64,000 nt of DNA from Alphaproteobacteria bacterium. GTDB lineage: Bacteria > Pseudomonadota > Alphaproteobacteria > Caulobacterales > Aquidulcibacteraceae. Location of the stretch: contig JAGWZH010000001.1 of assembly GCA_018971945.1 (NCBI GenBank), positions 1-64,000 on the forward strand, written 5' to 3'. This document shows, piece by piece, positions 9,867 through 13,517 of the stretch. Every line of letters begins with the position of its first letter. Position 1 is the first letter of the stretch. Below the pieces are notes generated by a model, which was not told the origin of the DNA, made no database searches, and was given only the letters and a program-made list of their open reading frames with translations. The position numbers and the translations under genes are program-made.

Positions 9867-11150
9867 ATGACTCGTTTGCCTGATCCGGCCGCCCAGGCCC
9901 GCGAAGCGCTGGAAGACGGCGCCCCCGTTGTGATGCTGTTGGGCCGCGCCGGCACCGGCAAGAGCCATTTCATCCGGGAGCTGATTAAAGATGCCGATCG
10001 CCCCCAGGTGATCTTGGCCCCCACAGGCCTTGCCGCGATGAACATCGGCGGCCAAACGGTTCACTCGTTTTTCGGTCTGCCGCCGCGTCCGCTCGTCGGC
10101 TTCAGCGAAAAGCCCAACTGGTTCTTCACCAAGGCCGCGAGGGGGGCGAGCCGCATCATCGTCGATGAGATATCCATGCTGCGCGCCGACGTGCTTGACG
10201 CCATGGACGCCCAGCTGCGGGCGGCGCGTCGTTCCTCAAGACCCTTTGGCGGCGTGCAGATGCTGCTCGTGGGCGATTTCCATCAGCTTCCCCCGGTCGT
10301 CCGCGGCGCCGAGGCCGAGATTCTCGCCGAGGCCGGCTATGCCTCGCCCTTCGCCTTTTCCGCCCATGTCCTGCGCGAGGCCGACGTCGTCTTGTGCGAA
10401 CTCGATGAGGTGCGCCGCCAGTCCGACCCTTATTTCATCGACCTTTTGGCCCGTCTTCGGGAGGACAGGGATGTCGAGGGCGCGATAGAGGACCTGAACG
10501 AACGCTGCGTTGGCGCGGTCCTCGACCAGGAGCCCGTGTTGCTCGCCGCCACCAACGCCGTCGCCGACGCCTATAATCGCCGGGGACTTGAAGGGCTCGG
10601 CGGCCAGACCGGAATCTTCAACGGCGCTTTCAAGGGCGAAAGGGCGCCCAAAGAGCCGCCCCCGGGCGACCGCCTTCCCGCTCCAGCCCAGCTGATTTTG
10701 CGGCGCGGGGCCCGCGTGATCTTCACCCAGAACGATCCGGAGGGACGCTGGGTCAATGGTTCCTTGGGCCGCGTCGTCGAGTTCGAACCCAACCGCATCG
10801 CCGTCAAGCTCGACGCCAATGGCGAAATCCACGAAGTCGCCAAGGCGCGTTGGCCGCAGGCCCGTTGGGTCTGGAACGACGCGCTCAAAGAGCTTGAGCC
10901 CAAGGAGGACTATTCCTATGAGCAGTTCCCCTTGGCCCACGCCTGGGCGCTGACCATTCATAAAGCCCAGGGCATGACCCTTGACGCGGTGGAGATTGAT
11001 CTTGGCCGCGGGGCGTTTGCAGCGGGACAGACCTATGTCGCGCTCTCCCGCGCCCGAAGTCTTGAGGGCCTGCGTCTGGCCCGTCCCCTGAAGCCCCGCG
11101 ATGTGCAGATCGATCCGGTCATTGAGGAAGGCCTCGCCCGGTTTCGCTGA
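9867..11150 (+). CDS. PIF1/RecD-like ATP-dependent helicase
   Basis: 427-residue superfamily 1B helicase. The Walker A motif is LLGRAGTGKSHF (about residues 24-35), followed by ILAPTGLAAMNIGGQTVHSFFG (motif Ia region), Walker B IIVDEISMLRAD, motif III LVGDFHQLPPVV and the C-terminal motif V/VI region AWALTIHKAQGMTLD plus YVALSRARSLEGL. This order matches the PIF1-type DNA helicases used in G-quadruplex and replication-fork processing. It lacks the extra N-terminal domains of RecD2. It is 43 bp downstream of soxR and codirectional; the tRNA-Cys-like gene lies convergently just after its stop. Confidence 0.9.
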   Translation: MTRLPDPAAQAREALEDGAPVVMLLGRAGTGKSHFIRELIKDADRPQVILAPTGLAAMNIGGQTVHSFFGLPPRPLVGFSEKPNWFFTKAARGASRIIVDEISMLRADVLDAMDAQLRAARRSSRPFGGVQMLLVGDFHQLPPVVRGAEAEILAEAGYASPFAFSAHVLREADVVLCELDEVRRQSDPYFIDLLARLREDRDVEGAIEDLNERCVGAVLDQEPVLLAATNAVADAYNRRGLEGLGGQTGIFNGAFKGERAPKEPPPGDRLPAPAQLILRRGARVIFTQNDPEGRWVNGSLGRVVEFEPNRIAVKLDANGEIHEVAKARWPQARWVWNDALKELEPKEDYSYEQFPLAHAWALTIHKAQGMTLDAVEIDLGRGAFAAGQTYVALSRARSLEGLRLARPLKPRDVQIDPVIEEGLARFR

Positions 11151-11165
11151 GGCGTTTGAAAAATC

Positions 11166-11240
11166 TGGAGGCCGGGCCTGGACTTTAACCAGGGTGCTCG
11201 GATTTGCGGTCCGAGGCGTTATCTCCTCCGCCACCCGGCC
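11166..11240 (-). tRNA. tRNA-Cys(GCA)-like gene with non-canonical loop bases
   Basis: 75-nt minus-strand cloverleaf including an encoded CCA (11166-11168). Acceptor stem GGCCGGG/CCCGGCC is perfect, the discriminator is U73 (a major cysteinyl-tRNA synthetase identity base), the D stem is 3-4 bp, the anticodon stem TCGGA/TCCGA and T stem CCTGG/CCAGG are perfect. The anticodon loop CCGCAAA reads GCA (Cys). Three loop positions are abnormal: C at 33 where U is almost universal, A at 56 in TTAAAGT where C is normal, and a D loop (GAGGAGATAA) that does not place G18-G19 conventionally. Intact stems argue against random decay. It could be the working tRNA-Cys, a specialised variant, or a pseudogene. 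Confidence 0.72.
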
Positions 11241-11483
11241 ATGGCGAGTGCCGTAAACTGAATTCGCTAAGACTTCTGGAAATCATGAGGTTAAGCCATT
11301 TTGACCATCCCGATGGACCCAAGCTGAGCGAGGCCTTCCTGTCCTCCTCCCTTGCGCGGGCGCTCGTGAAGCGCCGTGGCGAGGACCAAAGCGCCTCCCC
11401 ATGGGCCCTTCCCAAAAATCAGGCCGTCTGGCGCCAAGGTCTGGACAGAGCGGAGGCCTCTTTGTGTCGCGGACAGCGCGCCA

Positions 11484-13517
11484 CTAACCCGTCGCCCCGT
11501 CGCAGGCATAAGGCAGACGCGGATCGGAGCAGAAATCGGGCCATATCCCGGTCTGCCGCCAATAGCCCAGTAGCCCGCTATGGGCCATCAGCTGCAGATA
11601 CCGCGGATCGTGCAGCAAGTCCCGAAACGCCGGCGCGGCCGCGAGGTCTGCAGGAAACGCCAGGGCTTCCCCTTGCGCAGCCATTTGCCTGTCTGCGAGG
11701 GCGAAGGCGGCGTCTCGGTCTCCAAGCCAGCTGATCATCAAGACCGCATCATCGGTGAGCGCCGGATCGCGTTCGGCCGCCGCCCGCCAAGACGCGATCG
11801 CCTCTGCGCGCTGGCTCCGCGCCCGCAATCCCGCCGCCGTAGCGGCGAACAAGCCGGCCATTCTTTCATCCGTTTCGCTTGGCCGCACCCGCGGGTCGAG
11901 CAACGCCGCCGCCCCCGCATGGTCGCCATCGAACAGGGCGAAAAGGAACCTTGTGTTCCAAACGGCGCGCCCCTGTCTCTGCGCCGCCCGCGCAAGGCCT
12001 GCTCGCGCCTCTGTCCGCCGGCCCAGAGCCTCCCGCGTCCACGCCAACAGAAGCTGTGCGTCCAGAGGATCGAGGGCTTGCGCCGCCAGAAGATCTTCCA
12101 GAGCCGCGTGGAGATAGCCCATCTGCGACAACAATCTTGCCCGCGCCCGCAAGACTTGCGCATCGCTGGGCGCGAGCCGCACGGCCTGGTCCAACCACGC
12201 GCGCCGCGCAGCCCAGGCCTGTGGCGGCTCGAGCCCCGCCTTGACCGCCATCGCGTAGGCGTTCTCCGGGTTAAGGCGCAAGGCTTGCGCCGCGTTCTCC
12301 GCCGCAGCGAGGCGCAACGCTTCTGCATCCGCCGGCCTCAAATCCGCAAGGATCAGCTGCGCCCCCGCAAGCTCCGCCCATGCCCGATCAAAACCCGGCG
12401 CAGCGTCGGTCGCTCGCGTCAAAAGCGCGATCGCCTGTTCTAGATCATAGACGCCGCGACGCAGCCTCCCCTCGCGTCCGGCATAATAGAGCTCCAGAGC
12501 CTCCTCCGAGGCGCTCGATGCCGCAGCGGCCACGCTTGTCCGCGTGCTCCCGGCTATGGCCTGGGCGACGCCTGCTGCGATCTGGCGCTGGGCGAGACCA
12601 GCCATGCCAGGCTCCGCCAGCACCGTCTCCGACCAGACCACACTCGACCCGCGTCCAACCTCGCTCAGCTGCGCATTGACAGACCATCGCCCGTCGGCGA
12701 GCCGGACCGCCCCATCCAAAACATACCGGGCCCGGAGCATCCGCCCGACCTCGCGGCGCCGCTCCCCGGTAAATTGGAAACTGGAGGCGCGCGCCGCCAC
12801 GCGAAGACCCGGCTCGGAGGCGAGGCTTGTGATCACGTCGTCCGCGAGACCCTGCGCTGTCGCCGCCATGTCAGAAGTGGCGGCTTCAAACGGCAACACC
12901 GCCACAAGGGGGATGGGATCGGGTCGCGGCCAGACGCTCACGGCCGCGACCGCCGCCACGGTCCCGAGTCCCAAAGCGAGCGCCCAAGGCCGCCTTCGCG
13001 CCAGCCGTAATCGTGCGATCAGCCCGACTTTGCCGGCCAGACCATGCACATTGACTGTCCCAGACATCTTGTCGAGTTGCACCGGCCCTTGCGCGCGCAG
13101 CAGTCTCTGCACACGCTGCGGCAGCGGCCGCCGCACGGCCTCTGAGAGCAAGAGCCCGCGAGGCGCCGCCAATTGCATGAGCCTTGCTGCGACATTGACG
13201 CCATGGCCCAAAAGGTCCCCGTCCGGCGTGGTCCGCACCTCGCCCAGATGCGCCCCGATCCGCACCGCGGGGCCCCCATGCGAAAGCCGTCGCAACAGGG
13301 CCGTCGCGAAGCGCACGGCGCTCAACGCCGAACCGAACTCCGCCATGAAGCCGTCGCCCGCTTTGTTGAAGAGGCGCCCCTGGTGGGTGAGGCAGAGCGC
13401 CATGACGGCTGCGCGCACCTGGTCGACCGAAGCGATCGCAGCGTTCTCGTCCTTCTCGCTCAAAGACGAGTAGCCGACCATATCCACCGAGACGATCGCG
13501 GCGAGCTTGCGGTCCAC
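11484..13517 (-). CDS. Class III nucleotide cyclase fused to TPR region
   Basis: 677-residue membrane-anchored protein. Residues 1-160 are a class III adenylate/guanylate cyclase domain: metal-binding Asp12 in VSVDMVGYSSL and Asp55 in NKAGDGFMAEFG, and transition-state residues Asn108 and Arg112 in GVNVAARL, so it looks catalytically competent. A single transmembrane helix follows (about 174-197, ALALGLGTVAAVAAVSVW). Residues 205-330 resemble the TolB-like module found in this protein class, and the rest is TPR-like repeats. The architecture is common in alphaproteobacteria. It probably makes cAMP in response to a periplasmic cue. A CRP-type palindrome lies about 310 bp upstream. Confidence 0.88.
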   Translation of the reverse strand: MDRKLAAIVSVDMVGYSSLSEKDENAAIASVDQVRAAVMALCLTHQGRLFNKAGDGFMAEFGSALSAVRFATALLRRLSHGGPAVRIGAHLGEVRTTPDGDLLGHGVNVAARLMQLAAPRGLLLSEAVRRPLPQRVQRLLRAQGPVQLDKMSGTVNVHGLAGKVGLIARLRLARRRPWALALGLGTVAAVAAVSVWPRPDPIPLVAVLPFEAATSDMAATAQGLADDVITSLASEPGLRVAARASSFQFTGERRREVGRMLRARYVLDGAVRLADGRWSVNAQLSEVGRGSSVVWSETVLAEPGMAGLAQRQIAAGVAQAIAGSTRTSVAAAASSASEEALELYYAGREGRLRRGVYDLEQAIALLTRATDAAPGFDRAWAELAGAQLILADLRPADAEALRLAAAENAAQALRLNPENAYAMAVKAGLEPPQAWAARRAWLDQAVRLAPSDAQVLRARARLLSQMGYLHAALEDLLAAQALDPLDAQLLLAWTREALGRRTEARAGLARAAQRQGRAVWNTRFLFALFDGDHAGAAALLDPRVRPSETDERMAGLFAATAAGLRARSQRAEAIASWRAAAERDPALTDDAVLMISWLGDRDAAFALADRQMAAQGEALAFPADLAAAPAFRDLLHDPRYLQLMAHSGLLGYWRQTGIWPDFCSDPRLPYACDGATG

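What the first reader, a model, noticed from the sequence alone, without database searches (positions are those of the whole stretch)
11166..11240. tRNA-Cys-like gene with C33 and A56
All four stems are perfect, the CCA end is encoded and discriminator U73 fits cysteine, but the anticodon loop CCGCAAA has C at 33 instead of the nearly universal U, the T loop TTAAAGT has A at 56 instead of C, and the D loop does not show ordinary G18-G19. Together these would disturb the D-T elbow and the U-turn. Intact stems suggest constraint, so this may be a functional, structurally unusual tRNA-Cys or a specialised Cys-decoding tRNA, rather than a random pseudogene.
Basis: partly seen in the sequence, partly recalled or inferred. 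Interest (0 to 1): 0.72.

Follow-up and report, generated by a model that had tools for sequence, protein, structure and literature searches.

The report
Odd second cysteine tRNA gene
This bacterium carries, besides its normal cysteine tRNA, a second one whose stems are all intact but whose ribosome-facing and elbow bases are abnormal; such extra, deviant cysteine tRNAs are rare, but similar ones turn up in a few unrelated bacteria and one of those is clearly kept by selection, so it may serve something other than ordinary protein synthesis.

Summary
A tRNA-Cys(GCA)-like gene lies at 11166-11240 on the minus strand, with C33, A56, no G19, U73, encoded CCA and 20/20 stem pairs. It is a second copy: the genome (3.4 Mb, 99% complete) also has a canonical tRNA-Cys beside tRNA-Asn on another contig, and one CysRS. 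In 398 genomes of the order, tRNA-Cys is almost always single; 10 genomes have two, and besides this one only two second copies are intact but deviant, each found in one species. Neither 398 order genomes nor 385 class genomes gave an orthologue. Against 71 canonical tRNA-Cys, the gene changes positions 19, 26, 33 and 56, which are invariant or nearly so, yet breaks no stem pair; random mutation gives that with P <= 0.0005. Deviant C33 extra copies also occur in Desulfosporosinus, Paenibacillus and two Gammaproteobacteria MAGs. In the last pair the odd gene is 75/75 identical while its spacers are 77-85% identical, so that one is under selection. Best reading: a chargeable tRNA-Cys shielded from EF-Tu/ribosome use, like the non-proteinogenic tRNA-Gly of Staphylococcus. 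Close rival: a redundant copy early in decay. Expression, charging and a client enzyme are undemonstrated.

The parts
11166..11240 (-). odd tRNA-Cys(GCA) gene, 75 nt, CCA encoded
   Evidence: ARAGORN; Rfam RF00005 50.6 bits; sequence
11205..11207 (-). anticodon GCA
11208..11208 (-). C33 (U in 71/71 canonical tRNA-Cys compared)
11219..11227 (-). D loop AGGAGATAA (A14 to A21/A22): one base longer than canonical, G19 replaced by A (G in 71/71)
11215..11215 (-). C26 (A in 70/71 canonical); can pair with G9
11182..11188 (-). T loop TTAAAGT; A56 at 11186 (C in 71/71 canonical)
11191..11191 (-). U51 of the 51-63 pair (U-A, partner at 11179), C-G in 69/71 canonical; this pair is an EF-Tu affinity determinant in the literature
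   Evidence: PMC4052509
11169..11169 (-). discriminator U73
9867..11150 (+). PIF1/RecD-like helicase gene, convergent neighbour; its stop lies 15 bp from the tRNA 3' end; conserved in the family without an adjacent tRNA
11484..13517 (-). adenylate-cyclase-like/TPR protein gene upstream of the tRNA, same strand

Best explanation
A second, divergent tRNA-Cys gene that is still kept as a folded RNA. Shown: the cloverleaf is intact, the cysteine identity features that can be read from sequence (GCA anticodon, U73) are kept, and the D-T elbow (G19-C56), the U-turn base (33) and the 51-63 T-stem pair are changed. Inferred: the genome's single CysRS can charge it, but its weak elbow, C33 and altered EF-Tu contact keep its Cys-tRNA largely out of the ribosome, so it supplies cysteine, or acts as an RNA, for some use outside ordinary elongation. 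This is the arrangement known for the non-proteinogenic tRNA-Gly genes of Staphylococcus. The client process is not identified.
For: Stems 20/20 paired although 15 or more positions differ from the nearest of 71 canonical tRNA-Cys; neutral simulation P <= 0.0005 over all ancestors. Changes fall on loop positions invariant or nearly so in canonical genes: 19, 26, 33, 56. A canonical copy exists, so decoding does not depend on this one. Other extra tRNA-Cys share parts of the pattern with stems kept: G261 (T19, C26, A57, stems 20/20) and G121 (8-nt anticodon loop, 6-bp T stem). In two Gammaproteobacteria MAGs an extra C33 tRNA-Cys that also lost G19 sits between canonical tRNA-Cys and tRNA-Leu and is 75/75 identical, while the flanking spacers are 85% and 77% identical. 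Two Desulfosporosinus species and Paenibacillus caseinilyticus carry extra C33 tRNA-Cys genes, with a canonical one elsewhere in the genome. Staphylococcal non-proteinogenic tRNA-Gly replaces GG18-19 and weakens 51-63 (PMC4052509).
Against: No orthologue of this copy in 398 order genomes or 385 class genomes; the helicase locus in 11 relatives has no tRNA. Its genus has no second species in the held set. No sigma-70-type promoter or terminator match near it. No dedicated CysRS. No Lant_dehydr_C (PEARL-type) gene found, although the control for that search was silent too, so this is weak. The link between the window gene and the gammaproteobacterial one is resemblance, not homology.
Confidence: 0.42

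Rival explanations
1. A redundant duplicate or horizontally acquired tRNA-Cys in an early stage of decay. Its stems were inherited paired from an unsampled donor, loop mutations have accumulated first, and it has no function.
For: Present in one species only; canonical copy present. Other second copies in the order are also species-specific, and the G261 copy is absent at the same locus in four genus mates. Truncated tRNA-Cys copies at likely element borders do occur in the order (G243, G109). If the donor had identical stems, only the loop changes count.
Against: Even then, six changes at otherwise near-invariant loop sites with none in 40 of 74 stem bases has P about 0.009 ((34/74)^6, inference). 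No sampled canonical gene has the same stems: the fewest stem differences are 6 bases, all paired in the odd gene. The search also detected copies with destroyed stems (G243 at 51 bits), so intact stems are not only a detection bias.
Confidence: 0.35
2. A phage-type tRNA-Cys captured by the chromosome, whose C33 and loop changes originally helped it escape host anticodon nucleases or toxins.
For: C33 tRNA-Cys genes occur in six IMG/VR contigs, three of them near-identical to one in a Selenomonadaceae MAG.
Against: No viral contig carries the window's C33 + TTAAA combination in a tRNA; one weak match among phage records (75.7%). Neighbouring genes are metabolic, regulatory and housekeeping, not phage.
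Confidence: 0.12
3. An ordinary, if inefficient, elongator tRNA-Cys that adds to Cys decoding, the unusual loop bases being tolerated.
For: Chloroflexi and Elusimicrobia MAGs carry otherwise canonical-looking tRNA-Cys with C33, so C33 alone may be tolerated.
Against: Here C33 is combined with loss of the G19-C56 pair; each is otherwise invariant in 71 canonical genes; a canonical copy already serves decoding.
Confidence: 0.11

Closest known systems
Canonical alphaproteobacterial tRNA-Cys(GCA), e.g. G000:C70:1546-1619
   Same: GCA anticodon, U73, CCA, 7/5 acceptor-T arrangement, G13 and A22, U8, A14, U54, A58
   Different: C33, A56, A57, A19, C26, D loop one base longer, U51-A63 and further compensated stem pairs
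Non-proteinogenic tRNA-Gly isoacceptors of Staphylococcus aureus (FemXAB substrates; PMC4052509)
   Same: Extra isoacceptor beside normal ones; GG18-19 motif lost; 51-63 EF-Tu pair changed; cloverleaf kept
   Different: Amino acid; U33 is lost here as well; no FemXAB-like client shown here; not conserved in relatives
selC* tRNA-Cys (Mukai 2017; reviewed in PMC7609411)
   Same: Extra tRNA-Cys with GCA and U73 and an unusual body
   Different: selC* is 8/4 with an A51a bulge and tRNA-Sec-like arms, sometimes with selB*/cysS*; this one is 7/5, has no bulge, and no second CysRS was found
Extra C33 tRNA-Cys of Gammaproteobacteria MAGs JAJVHZ010000093 / JAJVIQ010000016, Desulfosporosinus and Paenibacillus caseinilyticus (found here)
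   Same: Second tRNA-Cys with C33 and disturbed elbow or T stem, canonical copy also present; G19 also lost in the Gammaproteobacteria copy
   Different: Those have a bulged C in the T stem; the Gammaproteobacteria and Desulfosporosinus copies lie inside tRNA clusters; homology to the window copy not shown

Membership tests
Canonical elongator tRNA-Cys | Cloverleaf with GCA anticodon, U73 and CCA | tested here: met
Canonical elongator tRNA-Cys | U33 | tested here: not met
   C33; U in 71/71 canonical
Canonical elongator tRNA-Cys | G18-G19 / U55-C56 elbow | tested here: not met
   A19 and A56; G19 and C56 in 71/71 canonical
selC* tRNA-Cys | 8/4 acceptor-T structure with A51a bulge | tested here: not met
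   7/5, no bulge; definition from PMC7609411
selC* tRNA-Cys | second CysRS (CysS*) in some lineages | tested here: not met
   one full-length PF01406 match in the genome, the other is a short weak match within a 986-aa frame
Non-proteinogenic (EF-Tu-averse) isoacceptor | GG18-19 replaced | tested here: met
   G18 A19; definition from PMC4052509; only position 19 is replaced
Non-proteinogenic (EF-Tu-averse) isoacceptor | T-stem EF-Tu pairs altered (51-63) | tested here: met
   U51-A63 versus C-G in 69/71; affinity itself not measured
Non-proteinogenic (EF-Tu-averse) isoacceptor | charged, but used by a non-ribosomal enzyme | not testable with these tools
   no client identified; PF14028 search silent, its control too
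tRNA pseudogene | degraded secondary structure | tested here: not met
   20/20 pairs; 50.6 bits
tRNA pseudogene | not conserved between species | tested here: inconclusive
   no orthologue found, but no second species of the genus was available

The most novel reading that the evidence does not exclude
Extra tRNA-Cys genes with a disabled elbow and U-turn arise repeatedly across bacteria (Alphaproteobacteria, Gammaproteobacteria, Desulfosporosinus, Paenibacillus) as a class of cysteine donors kept out of the ribosome, serving an unknown cysteine-transfer or regulatory role; the window gene is one of them.
Probability: 0.25. Interest if true: 0.8.

Novelty: new variant of a known kind. Interest (0 to 1): 0.5.

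Why it matters
U33 and the G19-C56 elbow pair are among the most conserved features of elongator tRNAs. An intact tRNA-Cys that breaks both, next to a normal one, is a ready substrate for asking whether bacteria other than Staphylococcus keep amino-acid-charged tRNAs outside translation, here for cysteine, for which peptide aminoacyl-tRNA ligases that use Cys-tRNA are known (PMC9016710).

Tried and rejected
Viral origin by exact C33 + TTAAA pattern: 27 viral matches, none a tRNA-Cys. Plasmid and phage BLAST: one weak 75.7% match each. BLAST with the 75-nt gene in 398 genomes: only itself, but insensitive, since canonical genes were missed as well; replaced by covariance models R1 and R2. R2 built from the window copy and the G261 copy to look for a shared family: top class hits that were inspected were canonical, and four 75-nt hits were canonical with a longer D loop. 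Dedicated CysRS: none. PEARL-type gene: none found, control silent. Defence-system link: only weak generic helicase and MerR matches. Terminal-repeat element around the tRNA: no direct repeats; one 17/20 inverted match, E 0.017 in the pair comparison, judged possible chance.

Full report
Observation. The tRNA-like gene is real: ARAGORN reports tRNA-Cys(GCA) at 11166-11240, minus strand, and the Rfam tRNA model scores 50.6 bits, above its gathering score of 29. All 20 stem pairs form. In this model D-stem pairs are 10-12/23-25 with G13 and A22 as in the canonical family genes, and a G9-C26 pair can be added.

It is a second copy. The window lies in a 3.4 Mb, 233-contig assembly, 99% complete; 37 places match the tRNA model. 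A canonical tRNA-Cys lies at C70:1546-1619 beside tRNA-Asn, the same neighbourhood as in several relatives. A covariance model of tRNA-Cys (R1) finds tRNA-Cys in 54 of 60 family genomes and 379 of 398 order genomes, nearly always once. Ten genomes show two. Five second copies are canonical (G238, G200, G293, G301, G320). G243 and G109 are truncated copies, as left by elements at tRNA genes. Only G000, G261 and G121 have full-length deviant second copies.

What changed. Compared with 71 canonical tRNA-Cys from the order and class, the window gene differs at positions that are constant or nearly so: 19 (G in 71/71), 26 (A in 70/71), 33 (U in 71/71), 56 (C in 71/71), with one inserted D-loop base. 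The 51-63 pair is U-A; it is C-G in 69/71. The nearest canonical gene differs at 15 alignment columns, 6 in stems; every changed stem position is paired. Simulating the same number of random substitutions from each of the 71 genes keeps all stems paired with P at most 0.0005; for the G261 copy P is at most 0.0013 and for G121 0.010. A limit: if the donor was an unsampled gene with identical stems, only the loop changes count, and six changes at near-invariant loop sites with none in the 40 stem bases has P about 0.009. The search could see copies with broken stems (G243 at 51 bits), so this is not only a detection bias.

Relatives of this copy. None was found: not in 398 order genomes (BLAST, model R1), not in 385 class genomes with a model from the window and G261 copies, and not beside the conserved helicase in 11 relatives. 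The G261 copy is likewise absent beside the same peptidase gene in four genus mates. So each deviant copy in this order looks young.

A wider survey. One scan of 84,980 species genomes for tRNA-Cys with C33 gave 15 stretches, none named as alphaproteobacterial (the tool may leave out the window's own genome). Some are otherwise canonical tRNAs in Chloroflexi or Elusimicrobia MAGs; some are damaged copies (Trinickia, Janthinobacterium MAG). Three groups resemble the window case in being extra copies with disturbed bodies: two Desulfosporosinus species, Paenibacillus caseinilyticus (two adjacent), and two Gammaproteobacteria MAGs; each genome also has another tRNA-Cys with U33. All three carry an extra C in the T stem. 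In the Gammaproteobacteria the odd gene lies between canonical tRNA-Cys and tRNA-Leu, lacks G19 as the window gene does, and shows 0 differences in 75 bases while the spacers on its two sides are 85% and 77% identical. That copy is under purifying selection. Phages also carry C33 tRNA-Cys.

Mechanism. The parts that CysRS reads in sequence (GCA, U73) are kept and the genome has a single full-length CysRS, so charging is plausible. The parts needed for use in elongation are the ones altered: the G19-C56 elbow, the U-turn base and a T-stem pair that sets EF-Tu affinity. The same combination, GG18-19 lost and 51-63 weakened, marks the tRNA-Gly isoacceptors that S. aureus diverts to cell-wall synthesis (PMC4052509). 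I therefore favour a chargeable tRNA-Cys kept away from the ribosome, at 0.42. Charging, expression and client are inferred or unknown. The main rival, a redundant copy early in decay, gets 0.35, because the copy is confined to one species and no promoter or terminator match was seen.

Membership. It is not a canonical elongator tRNA-Cys (U33 and elbow tested and not met), not selC* tRNA-Cys (8/4 structure and bulge tested and not met; PMC7609411), and not a degraded pseudogene by fold. It works like a non-proteinogenic isoacceptor on two sequence features, but use by a non-ribosomal enzyme could not be tested.

Noticed in passing
L198:7268-7342 and L201:6235-6309: Gammaproteobacteria MAGs: an extra tRNA-Cys with C33, G19 lost and a bulged C in the T stem, inside a Gly-Cys-Leu tRNA cluster, fully conserved while its spacers diverge.
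   Followed up: yes
L202:1192-1266, L205:5956-6030, L194:7811-7988: Desulfosporosinus (two species) and Paenibacillus caseinilyticus (two adjacent copies) carry extra tRNA-Cys with C33 and a bulged C in the T stem; the Desulfosporosinus copies sit in tRNA clusters and differ by one base.
   Followed up: partly
L143:1501-1574 (G261:C8:637909-637982): Extra tRNA-Cys with T19, C26, C38 and A57 and all stems paired; absent at that locus in four genus mates.
   Followed up: yes
L146:1501-1577 (G121:C8:62173-62249): Extra tRNA-Cys-like gene with an 8-nt anticodon loop and a 6-bp T stem, 77 nt.
   Followed up: partly
L213:3457-3532, L215:1394-1469, L218:8544-8619, L196:1033-1108: Near-identical C33 tRNA-Cys in three viral contigs and one Selenomonadaceae MAG.
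   Followed up: no
L193, L199, L204, L200: Chloroflexi and Elusimicrobia MAGs with an otherwise canonical-looking tRNA-Cys bearing C33; whether it is their only tRNA-Cys was not tested.
   Followed up: no
L118:1501-2872 (G243:C219): A 3' tRNA-Cys fragment about 1.3 kb downstream of the intact tRNA-Cys, as left by an element integrated at the gene.
   Followed up: no
window 11125-11144 and 11321-11340: Inverted 17/20 match (13 exact) on either side of the tRNA, one arm inside the helicase 3' end; may be chance.
   Followed up: partly
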